From: Amycolatopsis balhimycina FH 1894
GTDB taxonomy: Bacteria; Actinomycetota; Actinomycetes; Mycobacteriales; Pseudonocardiaceae
Assembly (NCBI RefSeq): GCF_000384295.1
Contig: NZ_KB913037.1
Span: 3,086,649-3,150,648 of the forward strand
Reading direction: 5' to 3'
DNA length: 64,000 nucleotides
This document shows positions 45,116 through 58,893 of this stretch, piece after piece; within the stretch, counting starts at the first letter, position 1, and every line of letters begins with the position of its first letter. The translations under genes and the position numbers were made by a program. Below the pieces are notes generated by a model. The model was given only the letters and a program-made list of their open reading frames with translations. It was not told the origin of the DNA and did no database searches.

Positions 45116-46001
45116 TTCTCCTGGACCTGCCGGGCACGAGCGGGTCGACACCGAGGAACCGCTCGATCCGCATCGCCGGGGGCCGGCCGCCGTGGTTCGG
45201 GCAGCCGGCCGCTCCGCACCCGCGTGGCCGGCGCCCAGGGACCGCGTCGGCGCCCGGCGCCCGGCCTGACGGGTGCGCAGCGCGGCGGAGCCTGGCCGGC
45301 TCGGGCCTCCTGGCCACTGCCGTCGACCACTCCTCGAAAATGGTCAACGGCCGGCCACGACCGATCACGCGCACCGGAACGACCGGATTTGATCAAGCAC
45401 TTCGAAGGCCGCCACAATCGGCAATGTCTCTGCTCACGAGCACCTGAACCGGCAGCTCGCAGCAGGAATCAGCCGCAGGACAGCTGTCCGGACATTCCGG
45501 GGCGCCTCAAGCTGCCCGGTCAGCCCCGTGACGAGTCGTTCGATCGCGACCCGGCTGCCGGCGATCCGTTGGGAGAACACGACTTTCCCGGCCTGGCGGT
45601 CCACCGCGCGGGCGTGGTGAGCAGTCCTGCCGACGTCGATGCCGACCCGGACGGCGTGGCCGGCACCGCCACCAACGGGGACCACGCGCCGCGGCCGGGC
45701 TTCCCATGATCGGCAACTCGTGAAGATCACCGGCGACAGCAGATTGTTCGAATTCCCGGCCAGCCCGAGTGAATGATATTCGACGACGTTTCGGCAGCAA
45801 TAAGTCCGCCAAATACAGAATTCATATCCACCCATGCCGACCTCGGCGGCGCCGACACCCGAATAGAGCAACCTAGGCCGACTATGGCCTGCCACTATTG
45901 TGATCATGCGGGGACCAGCCCTAACATACTCGAGGTCGGGGTTCGTACCGCACCGGCGCGGTGCACCAAAGGGGTTTGGCGTCATCCGCTGGGGGATGTG
46001 C
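45116..46001. other. non-coding region with transposase remnant, left border of the biosynthetic operon
   Basis: Nearly 890 bases without an intact gene. The centre (45507-45690) is an IS110 transposase fragment; 45120-45500 has open but unrecognisable frames. From 45700 to 45960 the GC content drops markedly, a probable promoter zone for the operon that starts at 46002. Confidence 0.5.
45507..45690 (-). pseudogene. IS110-family transposase, N-terminal fragment
   Basis: The minus-strand frame reads 'VRVGIDVGRTAHHARAVDR' followed by 'GKVVFSQRIAGSR', the N-terminal DEDD RuvC-like core of IS110 transposases with the first catalytic Asp in GIDVG. The match ends after about 60 codons and the rest of the ~400-residue protein is absent. 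It marks past insertion-sequence activity beside the lysine-aminotransferase operon. Confidence 0.75.
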
Positions 46002-47012
46002 ATGTCTACGGTTGATCACACGTGGTCTGATCCGCGTTCGCGGGCGACGGAATATCGCGCCCGATCCGGCAGCGCACTGGACACGATCGGTAACACGCCA
46101 TTGGTTCCTATGACTCGGCTCACCGCCGACACAGGAGTCACTATTCTCCTCAAACTCGAGTACTTCAATCCGACCGGCAGCTACAAGGACCGCATGGCGC
46201 TGGCCATGGTCGAGCAGGCCGAGCGACGCGGTGAGATCACGCCCGGTAGCACCACGATCGTGGAGTACACCGGGGGCAGCACCGGTTCCTCGTTGAGCTT
46301 TGTGTGTGCTGTCAAGGGATACCGGCTGCTGATCGTCACGTCGGACGCGTTCAGCGAGGAGAAGATCCGCACCATGACCTCGATGGGCGCGGAGGTGGTC
46401 ATCGAGCCGAGCGTCGGCGGGAAGATCACGCCGGACCTGATGCCGCGCATCATCGACCGGACGCGGAAACTCGCCGAGCAACCGGGCACTTACTGGACGG
46501 ATCAGTTCAACAATCCGGACAACGCCCTCGGCCAGCAGACGATGGGGCAGGAGATCCTCGCGCAGACCGAAGGCCGCGTCGCCGCGTTCGTCGCCAGCGT
46601 CGGCACCGCCGGCTGCGCGATGGGTGTCGCGACCGTGCTCAAGGCGCATGACCGCGCCATCGAGGTCCACGTCGTGGAACCGGATACGTCCGCCGTGATC
46701 AGCGGCGGACCGGCGGGTACCCACGGCATCGAAGGCATCGCCCTCGGATTCGTCCCGCCGCTGCTGGACCGCGAGCTCGTCGACGACGTCATCGTGGTCG
46801 ACGAGGCGGACGCCCGGGCGATGGCGAACCGGCTGGCCACCGAGGAGGGCATCTTCGCCGGCACCTCGACCGGCGCCAACGTGGTGGCGGCGCTGCGGTT
46901 GGCCGCGGCACGCCCGGACCTGGGCACGATCGTGGTGCCCGCCGTCGACTCCGGGCTGAAGTACATCTCCACCGATCTCTACCCCAAGCCGTCCCTGACC
47001 ATCGGGAATTGA
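46002..47012 (+). CDS. cysteine-synthase-family PLP enzyme
   Basis: A 336-residue fold-type II PLP enzyme. The Schiff-base Lys is in 'NPTGSYKDRMAL' (~58), the substrate loop in 'EYTGGSTGSSLS' (~89) and the phosphate-binding Gly loop in 'ASVGTAGCAMG' (~200). Relatives make cysteine, diaminopropionate or other beta-substituted amino acids. In the substrate loop, 'TGGSTG' replaces 'TSGNTG' of housekeeping CysK, suggesting a different acceptor. GGGGGAT precedes ATG 46002. It is the first gene of a seven-gene operon and probably makes a building block or acts on the lysine-derived product. Confidence 0.88.
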   Translation: MSTVDHTWSDPRSRATEYRARSGSALDTIGNTPLVPMTRLTADTGVTILLKLEYFNPTGSYKDRMALAMVEQAERRGEITPGSTTIVEYTGGSTGSSLSFVCAVKGYRLLIVTSDAFSEEKIRTMTSMGAEVVIEPSVGGKITPDLMPRIIDRTRKLAEQPGTYWTDQFNNPDNALGQQTMGQEILAQTEGRVAAFVASVGTAGCAMGVATVLKAHDRAIEVHVVEPDTSAVISGGPAGTHGIEGIALGFVPPLLDRELVDDVIVVDEADARAMANRLATEEGIFAGTSTGANVVAALRLAAARPDLGTIVVPAVDSGLKYISTDLYPKPSLTIGN

Positions 47013-47013
47013 G

Positions 47014-47934
47014 GTGAAGCCGGGGCACATCGCGCTCGGGCTCGCCATCGCGATCGTCTGGGGTTTCAATTTCGTCGTCGCGGACGCCGCCGTGGGACAC
47101 CTGCCACCGTTTTTGCTGGTGGTGTTGCGCTACGCGGTCGTCGCCCTGCTGTTTCTCCCCTTCACCCGCCGCGGCGGCCTGCCGTGGCGCTACATCATCC
47201 CGGTCGGACTGCTCTACGGCGTCGTCCAGTTTTCCGGGCTCTTCCTGGGATTGCGGCTCGGCGTCAGCGCGGGTGTCGCGGCGACGCTGATCCAGAGCCA
47301 GGCCGCGATCACCATCGTGCTGGCACGACTGGTGCTCAAGGAGAAATTCACGGCAGTCCAATGGGCGGGGCTCACGGTCGGCGCGGCCGGCCTGGTGCTG
47401 ATCGCCGCGTCCGGGGGCGCCAGCGCGCCACTGCTCGGCGTGCTGTGCGTGCTGATCGGGGCCGGGGGCTGGGCCGCCTCGAACATCGTGCTCAAGCGGG
47501 CCAAGAACGTCTCGGCCTGGACCATGACGGTCTGGCAGTCGGTCGCGGTCATCCCGCCGATGTTGCTGCTGTCCGGCGTCTTCGAGACCGGCCAGGTGCC
47601 GGCCGTCACCGGCATGGCGCCGCTGACGATCCTGGCCGTGCTCTACATCGCCTTGGTGGCCACGGGTTTCGGCAACTACGCGTGGTACCGGCTGATGCAG
47701 CAGGTCGGCCCGGCCAAGGGAGCGCCGTTCTCGCTGCTGATCCCGGTGGTCGGCATCGTGTCCGGCTGGCTCGTGCTCGGCGAGCGGCTGACCGGGCCGC
47801 AGATTCTCGGCGTGGTATTCACGCTGGCCGGGCTCGCCGTCATCATCTTCGCGCCGCAACTCATCGGTGTGCTCCGACGACTGATCCGCCGGCCTGCGGT
47901 GTCCGCGGAATCCACGGAATCCACATCCGCGTAA
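47014..47934 (+). CDS. EamA/DMT-family exporter
   Basis: A 306-residue protein with ten predicted spans in two EamA repeats ('AIVWGFNFVVADAAV' begins the first, 'GAGGWAASNIVLKRA' the second). Such proteins export amino acids and small metabolites. The GTG lies one base after the PLP-enzyme stop, so it is translationally coupled. It is the natural exporter, or self-resistance pump, for the operon's product. Confidence 0.9.
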   Translation: MKPGHIALGLAIAIVWGFNFVVADAAVGHLPPFLLVVLRYAVVALLFLPFTRRGGLPWRYIIPVGLLYGVVQFSGLFLGLRLGVSAGVAATLIQSQAAITIVLARLVLKEKFTAVQWAGLTVGAAGLVLIAASGGASAPLLGVLCVLIGAGGWAASNIVLKRAKNVSAWTMTVWQSVAVIPPMLLLSGVFETGQVPAVTGMAPLTILAVLYIALVATGFGNYAWYRLMQQVGPAKGAPFSLLIPVVGIVSGWLVLGERLTGPQILGVVFTLAGLAVIIFAPQLIGVLRRLIRRPAVSAESTESTSA

Positions 47935-47971
47935 AACGCAGCGAACCGCGCATCCGGAGGAGAACAGCTCC

Positions 47972-49291
47972 ATGAATGCTGCCGAAGTTCTGTCACGCCT
48001 TGGTCGTCACGTACTGGTCGATGGCTACGATTTCGTCCTCGACCTGGACGCCAGTAATGGAAGTTATCTGGTGGACAGCCTCACGAAAACTCGCTATCTG
48101 GACTTCTTTTCGTTCTTTTCGTCCGCACCGCTGGGCATGAATCATCCCGCCCTGCGCGAGGATCGCGAATTCCTCCACGAGCTGGCCAGGGCCGCCGTTC
48201 ACAAGCCCGCCAACCCGGACGTCTACACGGTCGAGTACGCCACGTTCGTGGAACGGTTCGCCGCCGTGCTGGGCGACCCGGCACTTCCCCGGCTGTTCTT
48301 CATCGACGGTGGCACCCTCGCCGTGGAGAACGCGCTCAAGGCCGCTTTCGACTGGAAAGCGCGCCGGGCCGGCCTGGCCGAGGGCGACGGATCACCGCCG
48401 CTGGTCGCCATGCACCTCACCGGCGCGTTCCACGGCCGCAGCGGCTACGCGTTGTCGATGACCAACACCGATCCGCGCAAGACCGACCTGTTCCCGAAGT
48501 TCGACTGGCCACGGATCACCGCGCCCGTCATCACGTTCCCGGACGACGTCGATGATCCGACGGCGTTGCGGGCCAGGGAAGCCGCCGCGCTGGCCCAGGC
48601 CGAGGCCGCGTTCGCCGACCCACGGTGGACCGTGGCGTGCTTCGTCGCGGAGGTGATCCAGGGCGAGGGTGGCGACCGGCACCTGAGCGCCGAGTTCCTG
48701 CTGGCCATGCAACGGCTGTGCCACCAGGCGGACGCGTTGTTCGTGGTGGACGAGGTGCAGACCGGTGGCGGGACGACCGGTACCGCCTGGGCCTACGAGC
48801 AACTGGGTCTCGAACCGGACCTGGTCGCGTTCGGCAAGAAGACCCAGGTGTGCGGCGTGATGGCCGGACGCCGGATCGACTGGGTGCCCGACAACGTGTT
48901 CCGGGTGTCGTCCCGGATCTCGTCGACGTGGGGCGGCAATCTCGTCGACATGGTCCGCGCCACCCGGATCTTCGACGTGATGGAGCGCGACCAGCTCATC
49001 CCGGCCGCGGCCAAGCTCGGTGATCGCCTGCTGCTCGGCCTGCGCGAGATCGGCGTCGCGTACACCGACGTGATCAGCAATGTCCGCGGCCGTGGCCTGC
49101 TGTGCGCCTTCGACCTGCCCGACCCGGCCGGGCGGGACGCCGTGATCGACACGCTACGGACCAGGTGCGGCGTCCTGGTGCTGCCATCGGGCGAGCGCAG
49201 TGTCCGGTTCCGCCCGCCGTTGACCGTGTCCGAGGAGGACATCGACCGCGGGCTGACCGCGGTCGCCGACGTGCTGGAGAGATACCCGTGA
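47972..49291 (+). CDS. lat: L-lysine 6-transaminase
   Basis: A 439-residue class III aminotransferase aligning closely with mycobacterial LAT (Rv3290c). Features: 'SYLVDSLTKTRYLDFFSFFSS', 'HLTGAFHGRSGYALSMTNT', the Glu gate in 'IQGEGGDRHLS', the PLP Asp in 'LFVVDEVQTGGGTTGTAW' and the Schiff-base Lys in 'AFGKKTQVCG'. The family converts L-lysine and 2-oxoglutarate to aminoadipate semialdehyde, which cyclises to piperideine-6-carboxylate. GGAGGAG lies just upstream. Here no beta-lactam genes follow; two oxygenases do, so the product is probably a different lysine derivative. Confidence 0.93.
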   Translation: MNAAEVLSRLGRHVLVDGYDFVLDLDASNGSYLVDSLTKTRYLDFFSFFSSAPLGMNHPALREDREFLHELARAAVHKPANPDVYTVEYATFVERFAAVLGDPALPRLFFIDGGTLAVENALKAAFDWKARRAGLAEGDGSPPLVAMHLTGAFHGRSGYALSMTNTDPRKTDLFPKFDWPRITAPVITFPDDVDDPTALRAREAAALAQAEAAFADPRWTVACFVAEVIQGEGGDRHLSAEFLLAMQRLCHQADALFVVDEVQTGGGTTGTAWAYEQLGLEPDLVAFGKKTQVCGVMAGRRIDWVPDNVFRVSSRISSTWGGNLVDMVRATRIFDVMERDQLIPAAAKLGDRLLLGLREIGVAYTDVISNVRGRGLLCAFDLPDPAGRDAVIDTLRTRCGVLVLPSGERSVRFRPPLTVSEEDIDRGLTAVADVLERYP

Positions 49292-50052
49292 CACACCAGA
49301 CGACACACCCGACGACAGACCAGACGACACAGCTCAACCGCATCGGCTTCGACGACATCGACACCCCCGTCCTCTCCGCGACACTGGACGAAGTGGGCTA
49401 CGTGTACGTCGACGGCATACCGGAGAGCTTCGACCACGCCGAATTCCTGCGGACCCGCCTCGGTCCGCTGCTGCCGCAGTACGACGGGCAGACGGTCTGG
49501 TCGATCCGGCCGGACCAGCGGTTCGAGGGCACCTACCACTCGCTGAACAGCCGGCGGCTGACCCCGCACACCGAATGCTACGAGTGGCAGGACGCGCCAC
49601 CGAAGTACCTCGCGCTGTGGTGCCTCGTGCCCAACAGCGACGCGGGCGGTCAGACCACGCTCGCGGACGGTGGCGCGTTCGTCGCTTCGCTCGACGCGGA
49701 CGAACGCGAGCGGCTCAGCCAGGTCGAATACCACTTCGTGTCCTCCGCCGGGCTGCAGGAAATGCAGCTGGGCCGCACCGCCCGTCATCCGGTCCTGGAA
49801 CAGCGACCCGGCCGCAGTCCGATTCTCCGGTTCAGCTGCCAGTGCATCGCCGACGCCGACGAGTTCTGCCAGGACATCGGTGATCGCCTGCAGCGGTTCT
49901 TCGACCGGACGAAGGTGTCGGTCGAGTTCACCGCGCAGTCGCTGCTGATTTGGGACAACCACCGATTCCTGCACTCCCGGAACGCCTTCACCGATCCACG
50001 GCGGCACCTACGCCGCGTCTGGATCGCCGAACAGGAGAGGACCGAACAGTGA
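49288..50052 (+). CDS. 2-oxoglutarate/Fe(II) oxygenase, TauD-like (1)
   Basis: A 254-residue clavaminate-synthase/TauD-like oxygenase. Iron ligands are His-x-Glu in 'TPHTECYEW' and a distal His in 'WDNHRFLHSRNAF', with the 2-oxoglutarate Arg in 'RRHLRRVWI'. An HxE rather than HxD triad is the mark of AsnO/VioC-type enzymes that hydroxylate free amino acids (family knowledge). GTG 49288 overlaps the lat stop. The N-terminus is a Thr-rich, low-complexity tail. It and the next gene are diverged tandem paralogues. Confidence 0.9.
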   Translation: MTHQTTHPTTDQTTQLNRIGFDDIDTPVLSATLDEVGYVYVDGIPESFDHAEFLRTRLGPLLPQYDGQTVWSIRPDQRFEGTYHSLNSRRLTPHTECYEWQDAPPKYLALWCLVPNSDAGGQTTLADGGAFVASLDADERERLSQVEYHFVSSAGLQEMQLGRTARHPVLEQRPGRSPILRFSCQCIADADEFCQDIGDRLQRFFDRTKVSVEFTAQSLLIWDNHRFLHSRNAFTDPRRHLRRVWIAEQERTEQ

Positions 50053-50777
50053 CCACGGCACAGCACGCGGCGACCAGCCGGCTGAACTACCAGGACCTGA
50101 GCGTCCCGGCACTGCGCGATCTGCTGGACACCAACGGATACGCCTACGTCGACGGAATCCCCGGCGATTTCGACCACGTCGCCTTCCTGACCCGGATCGG
50201 CCCGCTGATGCCGCAGTACGACGGCGAGCTGATCTGGTCGATCCGCGCCGAGGAGCGCTTCGCCGAGCTCTACCATTCACTGAACACCAAGCCGCTGTTC
50301 CCGCACAGCGAGTGCTACGAGTTCACCGGCCGGCCACCGAAGTATCTGGCGTTGTGGTGCCTGGTCCCCAGCGACGACGGCGGCGGGCACACCACCCTCG
50401 CGGACATGTACCGGTTCGTCGACGGCCTGTCCGAGGCCGAGCGCACGCACATCTCGACGCGGACCTACCGGTTCTTCTCCAGCGCCGGCGTGCAGGACAT
50501 GCAGCTGGGCCGGGTCGCCGAGCATCCGTTCATCGAATACCGGGACGGCCGGCCGCCGATCGTCCGGTTCAGCCTGAACAACGTGGACAAGTCGGACGAC
50601 GAGGTGCTGCCGGGTGTGCTGAACCGGGCGGTGGAGTACTTCGACCAGGAGCACATCGCGGTGAACTACGCCACGAACTCGCTGCTGATCTGGGACAACC
50701 ACCGCATGACGCACTCCCGGACCGGCTACACCAACCACGGCCGGCACCTGCGCCGGGTATGGCTCGACGAGACATGA
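50049..50777 (+). CDS. 2-oxoglutarate/Fe(II) oxygenase, TauD-like (2)
   Basis: A 242-residue paralogue of the preceding oxygenase, sharing 'YVDGIPGDFDH', 'PLMPQYDGELIWSIRAEERF' and 'PPKYLALWCLVP'. Iron ligands: His-x-Glu in 'FPHSECYEF' and the distal His in 'WDNHRMTHSRTGY'; the co-substrate Arg is in 'RHLRRVWL'. GTG 50049 overlaps the previous stop. Because both copies keep all ligands, two successive oxidations of the same scaffold are plausible. Confidence 0.9.
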   Translation: MTTAQHAATSRLNYQDLSVPALRDLLDTNGYAYVDGIPGDFDHVAFLTRIGPLMPQYDGELIWSIRAEERFAELYHSLNTKPLFPHSECYEFTGRPPKYLALWCLVPSDDGGGHTTLADMYRFVDGLSEAERTHISTRTYRFFSSAGVQDMQLGRVAEHPFIEYRDGRPPIVRFSLNNVDKSDDEVLPGVLNRAVEYFDQEHIAVNYATNSLLIWDNHRMTHSRTGYTNHGRHLRRVWLDET

Positions 50778-51895
50778 CGCTCGAGGCCGGGGCGCGGGCG
50801 CCGGTCGCCGATCTCGCTGCCGGCCGGTGGAACGCTGCCGTGGATTCGTTGGACGGCAGCGTGTTCCTGCGAGACGAGTGGCTGCGGGCGATCGCCGGTG
50901 GCGGGTTGGTGGACGCGGACGCGGCGCATGTGGTGCTCGACGCCGATGGCGAAATCACCGCGTTGGCGGCCTGCCTGCTGACCCGCCGCTGCCCGAAGCT
51001 GGAGATGTTCCGCGAATACTACCTGAGTTCCCCGTTCGCGGGCCAGACCGTGGGTGTGGTGCACAGCATGTACGCGCAGCGCAGCCAGCTGCTGGCCCGC
51101 AGCGAGGCCGACCGTGCCCGGCTGCTGACCGAACTGGAGGACCGGTGCCGCGACGCGGCCGGGTTGTTCCTGCCCATGGTGGCCGCCGGCGATCCGTTGC
51201 TGGATCTGGTGCGGGATCGCGGGTATGCGGTCGGCCTGCTGTCGTGTACGAATGTCCTGCCGATCCACTGGGCCAGTTTGGACGAATACCTGGCCAGCCG
51301 TCCCAGCCGGAAGCGCAACAACATCCGGCACGTCCTGCGGACGGTGGAACGGGAGGGTGTCACCGTCGAAGTCCGGCGGGACGCCGAGGCCGTGGATACG
51401 CTCGCCCGCATGGTGGAACGCACCGCGCGCCGGCACGGGAGCCCGCTGTTCTTCGACGGCCGGTTCCTGCGGTCGGTGGTCACCGCACTGGGTGCGAAGG
51501 CATCGGTCTTCGTGGTGACGGCCGGAGAGCGCGTGCTGCTCAGCTGCCTGGCACTGCACCACGGTGGCGAGCTCGTGCCGTGGTGCATCGGACTGGACTA
51601 CGACGCACTGCCGCAGTACGACCAGTACAACGCGCTGTACATCGCGATCATCCGCTACGCCATCGAGCACGGTGTACGTGAGGTGAACTTCGGGCGCAGC
51701 ACGTATCTGATCAAGCGCAAGTTCGGCTGTGTGCAGCGGCCGGTGTACGCCGCGATGACGGGCCCGCCGCACCACGCGGCCGATCGCCGGGAGTGGATCG
51801 ACGCGATCGATCGCCGGGCCCGCCGGGAACTGGCCGAGGTGAGCCTGGCGGTGACGGACGGGGACGAGTACGCACGCAAGGTTGGGGAGCGGTGA
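50774..51895 (+). CDS. FemAB/GNAT-like aminoacyl- or acyltransferase
   Basis: A 373-residue protein of the FemAB-like GNAT group (Acetyltransf_6 type). Typical elements are 'SRKRNNIRHVLRTVEREGV' (basic helix, ~178-196), 'RTARRHGSPLFFDGRFLRS' and the late 'REVNFGRSTYLIKRKFGC'. Relatives form amide bonds, some using aminoacyl-tRNA. ATG 50774 overlaps the oxygenase stop. Together with the adjacent adenylating enzyme it could assemble an amide or dipeptide without an NRPS; the exact substrate is unknown. Confidence 0.85.
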   Translation: MTLEAGARAPVADLAAGRWNAAVDSLDGSVFLRDEWLRAIAGGGLVDADAAHVVLDADGEITALAACLLTRRCPKLEMFREYYLSSPFAGQTVGVVHSMYAQRSQLLARSEADRARLLTELEDRCRDAAGLFLPMVAAGDPLLDLVRDRGYAVGLLSCTNVLPIHWASLDEYLASRPSRKRNNIRHVLRTVEREGVTVEVRRDAEAVDTLARMVERTARRHGSPLFFDGRFLRSVVTALGAKASVFVVTAGERVLLSCLALHHGGELVPWCIGLDYDALPQYDQYNALYIAIIRYAIEHGVREVNFGRSTYLIKRKFGCVQRPVYAAMTGPPHHAADRREWIDAIDRRARRELAEVSLAVTDGDEYARKVGER

Positions 51896-53223
51896 TGACA
51901 GAGGCCACCGACGCGTTGCTGGCCGCCGGCGTCGCGCTGCAGCGCGACCATCGTGCCCGGCTGGCGAAGCTGCCGCCCGCCGACCGGCGGGCGGAGCTGA
52001 CGGAACGGATGCTGGTGCTGGCCCGGACGTTGCGGGCGTCGCACCGTGGCTACGCCGAACACTACCGGGACGTCGAAGAGCTGACCCCCGGCACCGTGCC
52101 CGCCATCGACAAGACGGCGTTGTTCGCGACGCCGGCCGCGTTCTGTGGCGCCTGCGGGATCGAACCCGATGCGGCACAACGATTCCTGGCCGGATCGTTC
52201 GAGCTGGGCAGCCGGTTCGACGACCAGCGGGTGCTGTTCGGCTCGTCCGGCTCGACCGGCGACCGGCTGCCCGTGCCGTACCACCTGCTCGACCTCGGCC
52301 GCAGCCTGGCCGCGTTCGTCGACCGGGCGGTCCACGCGGAGCGCCCGGCCGCCGCCCGCATGCTCTACATCGGACTGATGGACCGGCACAACGGCGGCAA
52401 CGCCTGGATGTACCACCTGCGGTCGATGCTCGACGTCCGGCTCGCCAGCCTCTTCGATCCGGTGCCCGACCTGCTGGCCCTCGTCCGCGACTTCACCCCC
52501 GACGTCATCCTCACCCGGCCCCACCTCCTGCTGGCGCTGGGCACGCTCGCCGAGCGGCAGGGCCACCGCCTGCCGCCGGCCCACCTGCTCAGCGTCGGCG
52601 ACCCGTTGACCGCGTCCGCCGCCGAGGAGATCGCCCAGCACTGGGGAACCGAGCCGCACAACAGCTACTCCACGGTGGAAACCGGGCCACTGGCCTACCA
52701 GGCCGACGCCGGCCGGCCGAGCCTGACCGTCTACGACGACCTGCACCTGCTCGAGCTGATCGACGCCGGCGGCCGGCCGATCACGGAGCCCGGTGTCACC
52801 GGCCGGATCGCGGTGACCACGCTGTACCGGTGCCAGTTCCCGCTGGTCCGTTACCTGGTGGGCGACAGCGCGGTGTGGCTGGACACGGACCTGACCCACA
52901 TCGGATTCCCGACGCGCGCCACCCCGACGACGTGGTCCATCGGCGGGCAGTCCATCGAACTGCACGAGGCCGACCTGATCTCCGCGATCCCCGCGCCGGC
53001 CCGCGATGTCCAAATGGTGCGATCGGCGAACGACACGCTCTTGTTCCGGTACGCCCTCACCCGGCACCAACCAGCCGGCGACCTGGAACAACGGCTGCGC
53101 GAGGCCATGACGACCCTCCTGCGCACCCATGGCCTGACCGCCCCCGTCACGATCTCGACCGAACGCGTCGACGTCCTGGCCCCCGACCACGCGACCGGCA
53201 AGATCCGCCGATTCGTCCGCTGA
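51895..53223 (+). CDS. adenylate-forming ligase (phenylacetate-CoA-ligase-like)
   Basis: A 442-residue ANL-type enzyme resembling PaaK/CapK proteins. Motifs: the phosphate loop 'LFGSSGSTGDRLPV' (~116), the 'NSYSTVETGPLAY' aromatic motif (~258), 'LVRYLVGDSAVW' (~318) and a terminal Lys in 'ATGKIRRF'. Such enzymes activate a carboxylate as acyl-AMP, then pass it to CoA or an amine. Stop and start overlap the preceding gene by one base (TGATG). It ends the operon, 7 bp from the convergent HxlR gene. Confidence 0.87.
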   Translation: MTEATDALLAAGVALQRDHRARLAKLPPADRRAELTERMLVLARTLRASHRGYAEHYRDVEELTPGTVPAIDKTALFATPAAFCGACGIEPDAAQRFLAGSFELGSRFDDQRVLFGSSGSTGDRLPVPYHLLDLGRSLAAFVDRAVHAERPAAARMLYIGLMDRHNGGNAWMYHLRSMLDVRLASLFDPVPDLLALVRDFTPDVILTRPHLLLALGTLAERQGHRLPPAHLLSVGDPLTASAAEEIAQHWGTEPHNSYSTVETGPLAYQADAGRPSLTVYDDLHLLELIDAGGRPITEPGVTGRIAVTTLYRCQFPLVRYLVGDSAVWLDTDLTHIGFPTRATPTTWSIGGQSIELHEADLISAIPAPARDVQMVRSANDTLLFRYALTRHQPAGDLEQRLREAMTTLLRTHGLTAPVTISTERVDVLAPDHATGKIRRFVR

Positions 53224-53229
53224 ACGCCG

Positions 53230-53610
53230 TCAGCCGGCCGCTGCCCGCGGGGCCGGATCGTGCCGGCGACGTGCCTCGGCGATGTCGCCGACGTGCTGCT
53301 CGGCCCATTCCCGCACGGGGGTGAGCACCTCGAGCAGCGAGCGTCCGAGCGGGGTGAGCGAGTAGTCCACCCTCGGCGGCACCGCCGAGGGGGTCTCGAT
53401 CCGGTCGACGATCCCGTCGTACTCCAGGGCGCGCAGCGTCTCGGTCAGCGCCTTGGCGGTCACCCCGTCGACGACCTTCTTCAGCTCGGTGAACCGCAGC
53501 GGACCCGGGTCCAGGGCGTTGAGCACGGTCGGCACCCAGCGCCCGCCGATCCGGTTGAGCACGTCCCGGCTCGGGCACCGGGCGGCGAGCAGGTCGTGAG
53601 CGGCGCGCAT
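53230..53610 (-). CDS. HxlR-family transcriptional regulator
   Basis: A 126-residue winged-helix HxlR protein: 'DVLNRIGGRWVPTVLNAL' (~16-33), 'GPLRFTELKKVVDGVTAKAL' (~36-55) and wing 'VDRIETPSAVPPRVDYSLT'. The conserved N-terminal redox-type Cys is at residue 12 ('ARCPSRD'). It is divergent from the SDR at 53698. GAAGATACC direct repeats lie between them. Confidence 0.9.
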   Translation of the reverse strand: MRAAHDLLAARCPSRDVLNRIGGRWVPTVLNALDPGPLRFTELKKVVDGVTAKALTETLRALEYDGIVDRIETPSAVPPRVDYSLTPLGRSLLEVLTPVREWAEQHVGDIAEARRRHDPAPRAAAG

Positions 53611-53634
53611 CGCTTGGCCTCTCCTGGTTTCGTT

Positions 53635-53660
53635 GAAGATACCGACATCTCGAAGATACC
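53635..53660. promoter_or_regulatory. direct repeats GAAGATACC, probable HxlR sites
   Basis: Two exact 9-bp repeats (53635-53643, 53652-53660), offset 17 bp, lie in the 87-bp divergent promoter between the HxlR and SDR genes. Confidence 0.55.
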
Positions 53661-53697
53661 TTCGCCGCATGAGAGAGCGGACTGGCGGAGGATCGCC

Positions 53698-54441
53698 ATG
53701 GACCTGGAACTGAAGGGCAAAACCGCCCTCGTCAGCGGCTCGTCGTCCGGAATGGGCTTGGGTATCGCGGAAGTCCTGGCGGCGGAGGGCGCCAACGTCG
53801 TCATGGCCGCCCGGCGCGGGGACGTGCTGGCGGAGCGAGCGGCGAGGATCGGCGCGCACGCGGTTCCCGCGGACCTGAGCCTGCCGGACGAGCCCGCGCG
53901 AGTGGTCGCGGAAACCGTCGAGCGGTTCGGCGGACTGGACATCGTGCTGTGGAACAGCGGCGGGCCACGCCCGGTCAGCGCACTCGGCTTGACGGCCCAG
54001 CACGTGGTCGAAGCCGCCGAACTGGTGCTGCTCCCGCTCGTCCGCCTCGTCCAGGCCGGCGTCGCGCACCTGCGCCGGAGTTCGAGCGGGCGGATCCTGG
54101 CCATCACGACGAACGGGGTCCGCGAGCCCACCCCGCACATGGCGGCCTCCAACGCGGTCCGCCCGGGGATCCACGGCTACCTGAAAACGCTGGCGACCGA
54201 GCTGGGACCCGACGGGATCACCGTCAACACCCTGGCACCGGGCCGGATCGCCACCCCGCGCCGGGACGCCCTGTACCCGGACGGGGTGCCGCACCACCTC
54301 GCCGCGGAGATTCCGTTGCGGCGCTGGGGAACCGTCCGCGAGTTCGCCGACGTCGCCGCGTTCCTGGCCTCACCCCGAGCCTCGTACCTGACGGGCACAA
54401 CCACCTACGTCGACGGCGGCCTGACGAGGAGTGCGTCCTGA
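53698..54441 (+). CDS. atypical SDR protein lacking Tyr/Lys catalytic pair
   Basis: A 247-residue SDR fold. The nucleotide motif 'SGSSSGMGLGIA' (~14-25) and C-terminal 'TYVDGG' are present, but NNAG is 'WNSG' and the YxxxK site reads 'MAASN', so both the catalytic Tyr and Lys are replaced. A subgroup of SDRs naturally carries this 'xASN..R' form, so it may be a real non-classical enzyme or a binding protein. GGAGGAT precedes ATG 53698. Controlled by the divergent HxlR protein. Confidence 0.85.
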   Translation: MDLELKGKTALVSGSSSGMGLGIAEVLAAEGANVVMAARRGDVLAERAARIGAHAVPADLSLPDEPARVVAETVERFGGLDIVLWNSGGPRPVSALGLTAQHVVEAAELVLLPLVRLVQAGVAHLRRSSSGRILAITTNGVREPTPHMAASNAVRPGIHGYLKTLATELGPDGITVNTLAPGRIATPRRDALYPDGVPHHLAAEIPLRRWGTVREFADVAAFLASPRASYLTGTTTYVDGGLTRSAS

Positions 54442-55196: not shown

Positions 55197-55685
55197 GTGG
55201 TCGAGGTGCGATTGCGGGTCAACGGGGTCGACGAGCTGCTCGATCTCCCTCCACAGGTCAGCCTGCTCGACGCGCTGCGCGAACGGTTGGGGCTGACCGG
55301 CACGAAGAAGGGCTGCGACCAGGGCGCCTGCGGTGCGTGCACGGTTCTCGCCGACGGCGAGCGGATCAACTCCTGCCTCGCACTGGCCGTCCAGTACACC
55401 GGCCGTGAGATCACCACCATCGAGGGCGTCGACGACCCGCTGCAGCGGGCTTTCGTCCGCAACGACGGCTTCCAGTGCGGTTACTGCACTTCCGGCCAGA
55501 TCTGCTCGGCGATCGGGATGCTGGCCGAGCACAAGAACGGCGCGCCGAGCGCGGTCACCGAACACCTCGCCGCCACCGGCGGCGAACTGACGGACGCGGA
55601 GATCCGGGAGCGCATGAGCGGCAACCTGTGCCGCTGCGGTGCCTACAACGGGATCGTCCACGCGATCCAGGAGGTCGCGAGATGA
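55197..55685 (+). CDS. Mo-hydroxylase [2Fe-2S] subunit, no signal peptide
   Basis: A 162-residue iron-sulfur subunit with the four plant-type cysteines in 'GCDQGACGACTV' and the second cluster in 'CGYCTSGQ' and 'CRCGAY'. Unlike its counterpart at 19285 it has no Tat leader and starts directly with the ferredoxin fold, so this complex should stay in the cytoplasm. A 28-residue insertion lies before the last cluster ('TEHLAATGGELTDAE'). Its stop overlaps the FAD subunit ATG by 4 bp. Confidence 0.93.
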   Translation: MVEVRLRVNGVDELLDLPPQVSLLDALRERLGLTGTKKGCDQGACGACTVLADGERINSCLALAVQYTGREITTIEGVDDPLQRAFVRNDGFQCGYCTSGQICSAIGMLAEHKNGAPSAVTEHLAATGGELTDAEIRERMSGNLCRCGAYNGIVHAIQEVAR

Positions 55686-56677
55686 GGTCGTTCACCTACC
55701 TGAGCGCGCCGGACGTCGAGACGGCGGTCCGCGCGATCGCCACCGAACCGAACGCGAAGTTCCTCGGCGGCGGGACGAACCTCGTCGACCTGATGCGCGA
55801 GGACATCGAGCAGCCCGACGTGGTCGTCGACATCACCCGGCTGCCGCTGACCGGGATCGAAGAGCTGCCCGGCGGCGGCCTGCGGATCGGCGCGCTCGTC
55901 CGCAACAGCAGGCTGGCGGCCCATCCCCTGGTCCGGACCCGCTACCCGGTGCTCGCCCAGGCCGTCCTCAACGGCGCTTCGGCCCAGCTGCGGAACATGG
56001 CGACCGTCGGCGGCAACCTGCTGCAGCGCACCCGGTGCCTGTACTTCTACGACGGGGCGGCCGCGTGCAACAAACGCGAGCCGGGCAGCGGCTGCGCCGC
56101 GATCGGCGGGTTCGCCCGCAACGCCGGCGTCCTCGGCGTCAGCGACCACTGCATCGCCACCCACCCCTCCGACATGGCCGTCGCGCTGGCCGCGCTCGAC
56201 GCAGAAGTCGAGGTGGAGAGCACCCGCGGCGTCCGCCGCCTCCCGCTGACCGAGCTGCACCGCCTGCCCGGCAGCACTCCGCAGGTCGAGACCGCGCTGG
56301 CCGCGGACGAGCTGATCACCGCCGTCGAGCTGCCCGCCCTGCCGGTGGCCGCGCACTCCCGCTACCGCAAGGTGCGCGACCGCGCGTCCTACGCCTTCGC
56401 CCTCGTCTCCGTCGCGGCCGCGATGGAGACCGAAGACGGCGTCGTGACCGACGTCCGCCTGGCGCTGGGCGGCGTCTCCGCGAAACCGTGGCGGGCCCGC
56501 GAGGCCGAGCGGATCCTGCTCGGCGCGCCGGCGACCGAAGAGTCCTTCCGCCGGGCGGCCGCGGCCGAGCTCGCGCCCGCGGTGGGCCGGCCGGACAACA
56601 CCTTCAAGATCGAGCTGGCGCAGCGCACGATCGTCGCGACACTGCGACAGCTGCTCACCGACGGGAGTGCCGCATGA
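55682..56677 (+). CDS. Mo-hydroxylase FAD subunit (PaoB/YagS-like)
   Basis: A 331-residue FAD subunit: FAD loops 'FLGGGTNLVDLM' and 'MATVGGNLLQRTRC', and the extra cysteines 'RTRCLYF', 'AACNKR', 'GSGCAA' that bind [4Fe-4S] in PaoB-type proteins. Sequence is close to the copy at 19927-20907, so the two operons share ancestry. The stop overlaps the next ATG by 4 bp. Confidence 0.93.
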   Translation: MRSFTYLSAPDVETAVRAIATEPNAKFLGGGTNLVDLMREDIEQPDVVVDITRLPLTGIEELPGGGLRIGALVRNSRLAAHPLVRTRYPVLAQAVLNGASAQLRNMATVGGNLLQRTRCLYFYDGAAACNKREPGSGCAAIGGFARNAGVLGVSDHCIATHPSDMAVALAALDAEVEVESTRGVRRLPLTELHRLPGSTPQVETALAADELITAVELPALPVAAHSRYRKVRDRASYAFALVSVAAAMETEDGVVTDVRLALGGVSAKPWRAREAERILLGAPATEESFRRAAAAELAPAVGRPDNTFKIELAQRTIVATLRQLLTDGSAA

Positions 56678-58893
56678 CCAGGACCCTGCCCGCGACGGAG
56701 ACCGGCGGCCCCGTCGTCGGCCGGCCGATCGACCGGGTCGACGGCACGGCGAAGACCACCGGCGCCGCGCTCTTCTCGGCCGAATACCCCCTCCCCGACC
56801 TGGCGCACGCGGCACTGGTGCACTCGACGATCAGCCGCGGCCGGATCACCGCGATCGGGACCGAGGCCGCGGCGGCCGTCCCCGGCGTCGTCGCGGTGCT
56901 CACCCACCTGAACGCTCCCCCGCTGAAACCGGCCCCGAAGGTGAGCCCGCTCAACCTCGCCACCCTGGTCTCCGGCACTTCGGTCGACTACCTCAACACC
57001 GACGAGGTCCACTGGGACGGCCAGCCGGTGGCGGTCGTCGTCGCCGACACCCTCGACGCCGCTCGCGAAGCCGCCGGGCTGGTCACCGTGACCTACGAAA
57101 CGTGGCCATCCACTGTGGACTTCGCCGCCGAAGAGAAGAACGCCAAGCCGCAGAAGAGCACCATGATCATGTCCGGCGGAGCGAAGAAGGGCGACGCCGA
57201 GGCCGCGCTCGCCGCGGCACCGGTGTCGCTCGATCTGCGGTTCACCACGCCGACGCACCACCACAACGCGATCGAGCCGCACGCGACCACCGCGGCCTGG
57301 GACGGCGACCGGCTGACCGTCCACGACGGCACGCAGAACATCGACTGGGTCCGCACGCACCTCGCCCTGCGGTTCGGTGTCCCGGCCGCGAACGTGCGGG
57401 TCATCGCGCCCTTCGTCGGCGGCGGCTTCGGCGGCAAAGGCATGGTCTGGCCCGGCACGATCCTCGCCGCGCTGGCGGCCCGCGCGACCGGCCGGCCGGT
57501 CCGGCTGATGCTCACCCGGGAAGGCGTCTACCGCACGGTCGGCGGGCGCACGCCGTCCACGCAGCGAGTCGCCCTCGGCGCCGGCACCGACGGCAGGCTG
57601 ACCGCGCTCATCCACACCAGCGTGACGCGCACCGGGCGGGTCGGTGGCGGACCCGAGCAGGTGACGTCGCAGTCGAAACACCTCTACGCCGCCGAAAACA
57701 TCCTGGTCCAGCAGAACCTGGTCGAGCTGGACCTGATCTCGAACACCTCGATGCGCGCGCCCGGCGAGTCGATCGGGACCTACGCGCTGGAGGCGTCGAT
57801 CGACGAGCTCGCCTACCGGGTCGGGGTCGACCCGATCGAGCTGCGCATGCGGAACGAACCGGCGACGAATCCCATCGACGGCAAGAAGTTCGCGCACCGG
57901 ATGCTGCGCGAGGCCTACGCGCAGGGTGCCGAGCGGTTCGGCTGGGCCGACCGGACGCCGGAACCGGGGTCGATGCGCGACGGGCGGTGGCTGGTCGGGA
58001 TGGGCGTCGCGTCGGCGTACCACCCGGCCTGGCAGTTCGCCGCCAGTGTCACGGTCCGGCTTTCGGTGGACGGCACCGTCCTGGTGCGGTGCGGCTTCCA
58101 CGAAATGGGCATGGGCGGCGCGACGGCGCAAGCGCAGATCGCCGCCGACGCGCTCGGGGTGCCGTTCGAAGCGGTCCGGGTCGAGTACGGCGATTCCACG
58201 CTGCCGGTGAGCCCGGGTGCCGGCGGGTCCATGCAGACGGCGAGCATCGCCAACAGCCTGCTGGCCGCGTGCGAGAAGCTGAAGAAAGAACTGGACGCAC
58301 TGGCGAAACGCTCGGGTTCGGCCGGGATGAGCCCGACGACGATCCTGGCCAAGGCCGGCGTGCCGTCGGTCGAAGCCGCCATCGGCTCCGACACGCGGTT
58401 CGGCCGGGTGGCCGGCCAGCTGAAGTTCATGGCGAAGTTCGTGCGCGATCAGCGGCGCTGGATGAAGGCCGCCTGCGGAGCCCAGTTCTGCGAGGTGCGC
58501 GTCGACCCGGACACCGGCGAGGTCCGGGTGTCGCGGTGGGCCGGGGTGTTCGACGTCGGCCGGGTGATCAACGCGAAGACCGCGTCGAGCCAGCTGCGCG
58601 GCGGGATCGTGATGGGCATCGGCATGGCACTGGCCGAGGAGACCCTGGTCGACCCGCGCACCGGGCGGATCATGAACCCGAGCCTCGCCGAGTACCACGT
58701 CCCGGTGCACGCCGACATCCCGCCGATCGACGTCGGCTACCTCGACGACCCGGACCCGACGATGCCGCTCGGCCTGATCGGCGTGGGCGAGGTGGGCATC
58801 ACCGGCGTCGCGGCAGCGATCGCGAACGCGGTCCACCACGCGACCGGCAAGCGGATCTACGACCTGCCCATCACCCTCGACAAGCTGCTGTAA
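56674..58893 (+). CDS. Mo-hydroxylase molybdenum-cofactor subunit
   Basis: A 739-residue molybdopterin subunit: 'FVGGGFGGKGMVWPG' (~250), 'IEPHATTAAWD' (~205), the cofactor loop 'SMRAPGESIGTYA' (~363) and the catalytic Glu in 'GVGEVGITG' (~707). A relatively long insertion around 530-590 ('KFMAKFVRDQRRWMKAACG') is not in the first copy. It would oxidise aldehydes or heteroaromatic substrates. Operon of three; no maturation chaperone gene is near. Confidence 0.92.
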   Translation: MTRTLPATETGGPVVGRPIDRVDGTAKTTGAALFSAEYPLPDLAHAALVHSTISRGRITAIGTEAAAAVPGVVAVLTHLNAPPLKPAPKVSPLNLATLVSGTSVDYLNTDEVHWDGQPVAVVVADTLDAAREAAGLVTVTYETWPSTVDFAAEEKNAKPQKSTMIMSGGAKKGDAEAALAAAPVSLDLRFTTPTHHHNAIEPHATTAAWDGDRLTVHDGTQNIDWVRTHLALRFGVPAANVRVIAPFVGGGFGGKGMVWPGTILAALAARATGRPVRLMLTREGVYRTVGGRTPSTQRVALGAGTDGRLTALIHTSVTRTGRVGGGPEQVTSQSKHLYAAENILVQQNLVELDLISNTSMRAPGESIGTYALEASIDELAYRVGVDPIELRMRNEPATNPIDGKKFAHRMLREAYAQGAERFGWADRTPEPGSMRDGRWLVGMGVASAYHPAWQFAASVTVRLSVDGTVLVRCGFHEMGMGGATAQAQIAADALGVPFEAVRVEYGDSTLPVSPGAGGSMQTASIANSLLAACEKLKKELDALAKRSGSAGMSPTTILAKAGVPSVEAAIGSDTRFGRVAGQLKFMAKFVRDQRRWMKAACGAQFCEVRVDPDTGEVRVSRWAGVFDVGRVINAKTASSQLRGGIVMGIGMALAEETLVDPRTGRIMNPSLAEYHVPVHADIPPIDVGYLDDPDPTMPLGLIGVGEVGITGVAAAIANAVHHATGKRIYDLPITLDKLL

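What the first reader, a model, noticed from the sequence alone, without database searches (positions are those of the whole stretch)
46002..53223. Undescribed-looking lysine-aminotransferase biosynthetic operon without NRPS or PKS
Seven genes are packed on one strand with overlaps of 1-4 bp: cysteine-synthase-like PLP enzyme, EamA exporter, lysine 6-aminotransferase, two HxE 2-oxoglutarate oxygenases, FemAB/GNAT-like transferase, adenylate-forming ligase. Known lat clusters (cephamycin type) feed a tripeptide NRPS; none is here. Inference: lysine becomes piperideine-6-carboxylate or its acyclic aldehyde, is hydroxylated or desaturated, joined to an activated acid by an amide bond and exported. 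The PLP enzyme could add a beta-substituent or make a partner amino acid.
Basis: partly seen in the sequence, partly recalled or inferred. Interest (0 to 1): 0.82.

Follow-up and report, generated by a model that had tools for sequence, protein, structure and literature searches.

The report
NRPS-free lysine-derived amide biosynthetic operon
A rare, tightly packed cluster of seven actinomycete genes, whose gene set recurs with one gene fewer in two related genomes, is predicted to turn lysine into a small amide that is likely exported, and no gene for the giant peptide-making enzymes (NRPSs) that such lysine chemistry usually feeds was found within 145 kb of it.

Summary
The cluster is real (46002-53223, + strand): a cysteine-synthase-like PLP enzyme, an EamA exporter, lysine 6-aminotransferase (LAT, 632 bits, cut-off 520.8), two HxE 2-oxoglutarate oxygenases, a FemAB-like transferase and a PaaK-like ligase. 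Four junctions overlap; two do not. The nearest NRPS condensation domain found is about 146 kb away.
The same genes, with one oxygenase and LAT first, lie in two other genomes. Oxygenase, FemAB and ligase homologues share contig lengths on 17 more contigs, two of them near-copies of known loci. The ligase is rare: 2 of 80 genomes of the genus, 1 of 394 of the class.
The LATs of both relatives group with that of a cephamycin-type cluster, and one relative carries piperideine-6-carboxylate dehydrogenase, so its lysine product may be alpha-aminoadipate. The transferase's predicted fold is closest to aminoacyl-tRNA-dependent FemX and Sbb17, so one amide donor is probably an aminoacyl-tRNA. The PLP enzyme lacks the TSGNTG loop of cysteine synthases.
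Best reading: an undescribed NRPS-independent route to an exported lysine-derived amide. Product and every reaction are inferred. A new variant of a known kind.

The parts
46002..47012 (+). cysteine-synthase-like PLP enzyme (PALP), 336 aa, substrate loop TGGSTG instead of TSGNTG
   Evidence: PF00291 234 bits; cysKM TIGR01136 291 bits, under its 344 cut-off; 78% identical to the copies in L039/L040 but 37-40% to the two nearest own-genome paralogues
47014..47934 (+). EamA/DMT-family exporter, 306 aa; nearest curated name is the O-acetylserine/cysteine exporter, at family level only
   Evidence: PF00892 123 bits; NF008523 137 bits, cut-off 472
47972..49291 (+). L-lysine 6-aminotransferase (LAT), 439 aa
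   Evidence: TIGR03251 632 bits, cut-off 520.8; PDB 2cin 518 bits; residues matching Mtb R170, E243, K300, T330, R422 kept, N328 is Ser
49288..50052 (+). 2-oxoglutarate oxygenase 1 (TauD/clavaminate-synthase-like, HTE...H), 254 aa
   Evidence: PF02668 87 bits; alignment A2; in a clade of 5 rows, 100/99
50049..50777 (+). 2-oxoglutarate oxygenase 2 (HSE...H), 242 aa
   Evidence: PF02668 94 bits; alignment A2; in a separate clade of 4 rows, 100/99
50774..51895 (+). FemABX-type tandem-GNAT transferase, 373 aa, probably aminoacyl-tRNA-dependent
51892..53223 (+). PaaK-family adenylate-forming ligase, 442 aa from ATG 51895 (GTG 51892 possible)

Best explanation
This is a tightly packed seven-gene cluster, with no NRPS condensation domain found within 145 kb and with the same gene set (one oxygenase instead of two) in two other genomes, that likely makes and exports a small lysine-derived amide by a route independent of NRPS. 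Predicted steps: LAT removes the epsilon-amino group of lysine to give alpha-aminoadipate semialdehyde / piperideine-6-carboxylate, the same first step as in cephamycin biosynthesis; in one relative a linked dehydrogenase would carry this to alpha-aminoadipate. The two HxE oxygenases hydroxylate or desaturate this amino acid or the finished amide. The cysteine-synthase-like enzyme, with its altered substrate loop, makes a beta-substituted alanine partner. The FemX-like transferase forms an amide by moving an aminoacyl group from a charged tRNA. The PaaK-like ligase adenylates a carboxyl group for the second bond. The EamA protein exports the product. Shown: the genes, their families, conserved motifs, co-occurrence, no NRPS found nearby. 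Inferred: every substrate, the order of steps and the product.
For: Families. LAT active-site residues kept. Same gene set in two further genomes. Oxygenase/FemAB/ligase homologues share a contig length on 17 contigs. Controls: 0 of 11 other LAT loci match any of the other six genes at E 1e-4; 0 of 12 loci with related oxygenases in one other genus match the PLP enzyme, EamA or ligase at E 1e-4. No NRPS C domain within 145 kb. L039+L040 LATs group with the LAT of a cephamycin-type cluster, 99/96. Pcd next to the ligase in L040, 778.6 bits against a 730 cut-off. FemX-like fold. PaaK-like fold. PLP loop change in 3 of 3 copies.
Against: The own genome has no canonical Pcd (best 263 bits, cut-off 730), nor has the L039 genome, a MAG (best 271 bits), so alpha-aminoadipate is not general. 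The window LAT's place in the tree is unresolved and on a long branch. N328 is Ser and might alter substrate use, though 7 of 41 other LATs have Ser there too. Gene content and order were read in only three loci, and LAT, PLP enzyme and exporter were never searched for on the 17 contigs. The tRNA reading rests on a predicted fold with 18% identity to FemX; a profile of the transferase matches no solved FemX by sequence, and in Foldseek a CoA-type tandem GNAT of clavulanic acid biosynthesis (rank 25) stands before FemA (rank 28). No product, expression or activity data.
Confidence: 0.55

Rival explanations
1. One reading: P6C or its open aldehyde is oxidised and joined to an acid activated by the PaaK-like ligase as AMP ester or CoA thioester, and the FemAB-like protein is an ordinary acyl-CoA-dependent N-acyltransferase; no tRNA is involved.
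For: Many PaaK-family ligases make acyl-CoA (recalled) and the transferase's Pfam name is acetyltransferase; ligase and transferase occur together; Pcd over the cut-off is missing in two of three genomes; some CoA-type tandem GNATs match by Foldseek too.
Confidence: 0.25
2. A modified-amino-acid cluster: the enzymes make a free non-protein amino acid (hydroxylated or unsaturated pipecolate/aminoadipate family, or a beta-substituted alanine), and FemAB and ligase only cap or protect it, so the final product is an exported amino acid or dipeptide antimetabolite.
For: An EamA/DMT exporter whose nearest curated name is an amino-acid exporter, small gene number, two amino-acid-type enzymes and HxE oxygenases.
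Against: Transferase and ligase are kept in 3 of 3 loci read and share contig lengths on 6 more contigs, so bond formation looks central; this is weak, as only oxygenase, transferase and ligase were searched that widely.
Confidence: 0.13
3. Lysine catabolism or stress operon: LAT feeds P6C to alpha-aminoadipate and central metabolism, as LAT does in other actinomycetes (recalled), the rest being passengers.
For: LAT is common in the class (88 of 394 genomes over the cut-off, own included) and Pcd adjoins in L040.
Against: 0 of 11 other LAT loci match the partner genes; the gene set is kept in three genomes while its order changed; an adenylate-forming ligase, exporter and FemX-like transferase do not fit a catabolic role.
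Confidence: 0.05

Closest known systems
Cephamycin-type cluster start (lat-pcd) in actinomycetes
   Same: Same lysine 6-aminotransferase step; L039/L040 LATs group with the LAT of L085, whose neighbours are a Pcd (798 bits), a DAOCS-like protein (name recalled) and an NRPS right after lat. L040 also has Pcd, 66% identical to that of L085. PMC9854754 (passages) describes LAT then Pcd as the alpha-aminoadipate route.
   Different: No NRPS and no IPNS/DAOCS-type gene among the seven; adds a PLP enzyme, FemX-like transferase, PaaK-like ligase and TauD-type oxygenases.
Aminoacyl-tRNA-dependent GNAT-fold transferases of natural products (VlmA, PacB, DhpH/DhpK, Orf11, Sbb17/Sba18)
   Different: 14-15% identity to Sbb17/Sba18 and 18% to FemX; partner enzymes and likely substrates differ; tRNA use untested.
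PaaK-like stand-alone ligases NatL2, AjiA1, ClxA
   Different: NatL2 and ClxA were solved with aromatic acids (titles of 6tm4 and 9s45); this cluster has no aromatic-acid genes, and identity is 16-18%.
Clavaminate synthase-like HxE oxygenases
   Same: HxE...H iron site, as described for CAS in PMC6097109 (one passage); distant profile hits to CAS 1 and gamma-butyrobetaine dioxygenase.
   Different: A far relative: 23 and 18 bits against a 450-bit equivalog cut-off; shorter (242-254 aa).

Membership tests
L-lysine 6-aminotransferase (TIGR03251) | score over the curated cut-off | tested here: met
   632 bits, cut-off 520.8
L-lysine 6-aminotransferase (TIGR03251) | PLP lysine and substrate residues of the Mtb enzyme (R170, E243, K300, T330, R422; their roles recalled) | tested here: met
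   all kept, also in 41 of 41 other LATs aligned; N328 is Ser here
L-lysine 6-aminotransferase (TIGR03251) | transaminates the epsilon-amino group of L-lysine | not testable with these tools
   needs an assay
Cephamycin / beta-lactam gene cluster | ACV synthetase (NRPS) linked to lat | tested here: not met
   nearest C domain about 146 kb away; no NRPS seen by eye among the translated genes of the stretches read around L039/L040
Cephamycin / beta-lactam gene cluster | IPNS/DAOCS-type oxygenase in the cluster | tested here: not met
   the two oxygenases match only TauD in Pfam
Cephamycin / beta-lactam gene cluster | linked piperideine-6-carboxylate dehydrogenase | tested here: not met
   not among the seven genes, and none over the cut-off in the own genome; present in the L040 copy
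FemABX aminoacyl-tRNA-dependent transferase | tandem GNAT fold closest to FemX/Sbb17 | tested here: met
FemABX aminoacyl-tRNA-dependent transferase | lysine equivalent to FemX Lys305 | tested here: inconclusive
   K314 and K316 are invariant in 25 aligned sequences at about the right place, but residue pairing was not obtained
FemABX aminoacyl-tRNA-dependent transferase | uses charged tRNA | not testable with these tools
   needs an assay
PaaK-family adenylate-forming ligase | fold and the C-terminal catalytic lysine (role recalled) | tested here: met
phenylacetate-CoA ligase PaaK (TIGR02155) | score over the curated cut-off | tested here: not met
   28 bits, cut-off 646
Cysteine synthase (TIGR01136/TIGR01139) | score over the curated cut-off | tested here: not met
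   291 of 344 and 279 of 351 bits
Cysteine synthase (TIGR01136/TIGR01139) | TSGNTG substrate loop | tested here: not met
   TGGSTG in 3 of 3 copies; TSGNTG in the two nearest own-genome paralogues and in the three PDB matches shown as alignments
Clavaminate synthase-like oxygenases | HxE...H iron-binding motif | tested here: met
   HTE and HSE in the two window proteins; 30 of 32 rows HxE, 2 rows HxD
Clavaminate synthase (NF043003) | score over the curated cut-off | tested here: not met
   23.4 and 17.5 of 450 bits

The most novel reading that the evidence does not exclude
Nature has an NRPS-free counterpart of the opening of beta-lactam biosynthesis: cephamycin-type LAT (with Pcd where present) supplies a lysine-derived aminoadipate unit, the cysteine-synthase-like enzyme supplies a cysteine-type partner, a tRNA-dependent FemX-like enzyme and a PaaK-like ligase join them in place of ACV synthetase, and clavaminate-synthase-like HxE oxygenases close or oxidise the ring system.
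Probability: 0.06. Interest if true: 0.92.

Novelty: new variant of a known kind. Interest (0 to 1): 0.6.

Why it matters
Cluster finders that key on NRPS/PKS genes would probably pass over these genes. If the reading is right, the lysine 6-aminotransferase chemistry of cephamycin biosynthesis is used here with a quite different, tRNA- and ligase-based way of making amide bonds, and it points to an untested compound class spread at low frequency through actinomycetes and metagenomes. The gene set is small enough (about 7.2 kb, one strand) to test by expression in a laboratory Streptomyces.

Tried and rejected
Rejected: cephamycin-cluster fragment (no NRPS or IPNS-type gene); 2,3-diaminopropionate (SbnA-type) reading (205 of 350 bits and no SbnB-type partner among the seven); plain cysteine synthase; lysine catabolism. 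A profile of the transferase found no FemX by sequence, so the FemX link is by fold only.

Led nowhere: plasmid searches with ligase and transferase (no match); the 15-genome genus g69 (0 of 15); 150 genomes of the unnamed genus g71 gave only far PaaK relatives (12 of 150 at E 1e-20, best 89 bits); 392 genomes of that genus gave 19 with related oxygenases, in other contexts where read. Hits named Streptomyces sp. NPDC088354 and Frankia sp. CiP3 could not be read as DNA, so their gene order is unknown. Paper searches returned nothing; of 28 (260 papers), 61 (8), 62 (240) and 89 (5) I saw listings only (20, 8, 20 and 5 titles), none on this gene set, apart from passages of three papers named in the report; 77 was on the cysteine synthase loop (passages of one paper).

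Limits: contig co-occurrence rests on equal 'longest contig' lengths, not on contig names. I entered 24 of 24 other ligase hits, 24 of 24 transferase hits and 61 of 81 oxygenase hits; the 20 left out share no length with the other lists by eye. Of the 17 contigs, the one of 43,788 bases carries an oxygenase and a transferase nearly identical to those of L039, and the one of 6,994 bases carries a transferase 97% identical to the window's, so not all are independent. The protein searches with ligase and transferase scored only about 8,000 candidates each. Genome searches scored only part of their first-look candidates (e.g. 4 per genome, 20). Alignment A1 used 22 of 25 ligase hits (three shorter ones left out), A2 28 of 81 oxygenase hits plus L039, L040 and the two window proteins, A3 22 of 24 transferase hits plus window, L039 and L040. 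The LAT tree had 44 rows: three cluster copies and 41 of the 89 other matches listed. LAT neighbourhoods were read for 11 of those.
Full report
Observation. The window is part of a 10.86 Mb single-contig genome. The tool's grouping puts it in one genus with a genome (G1110) whose ligase hit lies at the same contig position as locus L039, a MAG titled Amycolatopsis, so the host is probably Amycolatopsis. Seven genes run on the + strand from 46002 to 53223 with the boundaries given under parts. Four of six junctions overlap by 1-4 bp; cysK/eamA has a 1 bp gap and eamA/lat a 37 bp gap.

No NRPS found nearby. A condensation-domain search of the own genome gave 91 matches; the nearest lies at 2,985,705-2,987,044, about 146 kb upstream of the first gene (genome position 3,132,650), and the next downstream is at 8.27 Mb.

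LAT. The protein scores 632 bits on the lysine 6-transaminase model (cut-off 520.8), 518 bits to the M. tuberculosis enzyme 2cin, and is the only one of 17 matches over the cut-off in its genome. Residues corresponding to Mtb R170, E243, K300, T330 and R422 are kept in the window, L039, L040 and 41 of 41 other LATs; N328 is Ser in all three cluster LATs and in 7 of 41 others. That these residues matter is recalled from the Mtb LAT structures, not read here. In a 44-row tree the L039 and L040 LATs group with L085 at 99/96; the window LAT is on a long branch whose place is unresolved. L085 holds a Pcd (798 bits), a DAOCS-like protein (recalled name; no NCBIfam match at 1e-20), LAT, and an NRPS starting just after lat, i.e. 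a cephamycin-type cluster.

Conservation of the unit. The ligase has 25 matches, itself included, in a database of about 5.8 billion proteins of which the 7,996 best word-sharing candidates were scored. A pattern-based scan of 84,980 species genomes found two loci: L039 and L040. Both hold LAT, the PLP enzyme, EamA, one oxygenase, the transferase and the ligase in that order, so the content is kept while order and oxygenase number differ. Identities to the window: PLP enzyme 78%, EamA 66-69%, LAT 60-62%, oxygenase 49-58%, transferase 46-49%, ligase 46%. Close ligase relatives, own genome counted: 2 of 297 genomes of the family over 300 bits (248 of 297 have a match at E 1e-3, the rest of them weaker, general PaaK-type ones), 2 of 80 of the genus at E 1e-40 (own and probably the L039 genome), 1 of 394 of the class at E 1e-40; 0 of 15 and 0 of 150 in two other genera at E 1e-40. 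Homologues of oxygenase, transferase and ligase share contig lengths on 17 contigs: transferase with ligase on 6, transferase with oxygenase on 10, ligase with oxygenase on 5, all three on 2. One of the 17 is nearly identical to L039 and one nearly identical to the window. LAT, PLP enzyme and exporter were not searched for at that scale.

Controls. Of 11 other LAT loci read with several kb of flank, 0 match the PLP enzyme, EamA, oxygenase, transferase or ligase at E 1e-4. Of 12 loci with related oxygenases in one other genus, 0 match the PLP enzyme, EamA or ligase at E 1e-4; 3 have weak transferase matches of 27-28% and one a distant aminotransferase of 29%; one of them (L120) has an EamA-type protein by eye that this comparison did not catch. 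So the association as a whole is specific, though an oxygenase with an exporter or a GNAT recurs elsewhere.

Pcd. The gene after the ligase in L040 is L-piperidine-6-carboxylate dehydrogenase (778.6 bits, cut-off 730), 66% identical to that of the cephamycin-type locus L085. The own genome's best is 263 bits and the L039 MAG's best 271. So alpha-aminoadipate is likely in one host, and P6C/semialdehyde, or a general dehydrogenase, in the other two. PMC9854754 (passages) supports LAT followed by Pcd as the route to alpha-aminoadipate.

Oxygenases. Both have the HxE...H pattern, which PMC6097109 (one passage) describes for clavaminic acid synthase. By profile they lie near an unnamed TauD dioxygenase (7tcl), gamma-butyrobetaine dioxygenase, clavaminate synthase and others, all distantly. 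The two window oxygenases fall in two separate clades, each 100/99, and two metagenome contig lengths (5113 and 2875) occur once in each clade, so the pair looks like an old, kept duplication and not a recent copy.

PLP enzyme. It misses both cysteine-synthase cut-offs. Its loop reads TGGSTG where the own genome's two closest paralogues and three solved cysteine synthases shown as alignments read TSGNTG. Ser69, Asn71 and Thr72 of that loop line the ligand-binding groove in PMC3805590 (passages). A change of substrate is likely, its nature unknown.

Literature. No paper on this gene set appeared in the listings; that is a statement about open-licence papers under those terms only.

Judgement. 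Product and chemistry remain unproven.

Noticed in passing
window 45434-46003, - strand: Possible remnant of an IS110-type transposase just upstream of the first gene (PF01548, 23.5 bits, under the 29-bit cut-off; residues 120-164 only), which may mark how the cluster arrived.
   Followed up: partly
L119 9483-16597 and L120 1-4469: Related HxE oxygenases in one other actinomycete genus sit, in L119, beside a DUF6002 protein (669 bits), a FemAB-like GNAT (32 bits) and an asparagine-synthase-like protein; in L120 beside a protein with a weak saccharopine-dehydrogenase match and, by eye, a DUF6002-like protein and an EamA-type exporter: other possibly NRPS-free clusters.
   Followed up: partly
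   Followed up: partly
window 53230-54441: Downstream lie an HxlR-type regulator on the - strand and then a short-chain dehydrogenase on the + strand; neither was noticed by eye beside the L039/L040 copies.
   Followed up: partly
window 55197-58893: Three + strand frames that look like the small, medium and large subunits of a xanthine-dehydrogenase/CO-dehydrogenase-type enzyme (read by eye), apparently unrelated to the cluster.
   Followed up: no
L085: A genome of a large, unnamed genus holds a cephamycin-type cluster (Pcd, DAOCS-like, LAT, NRPS).
   Followed up: partly
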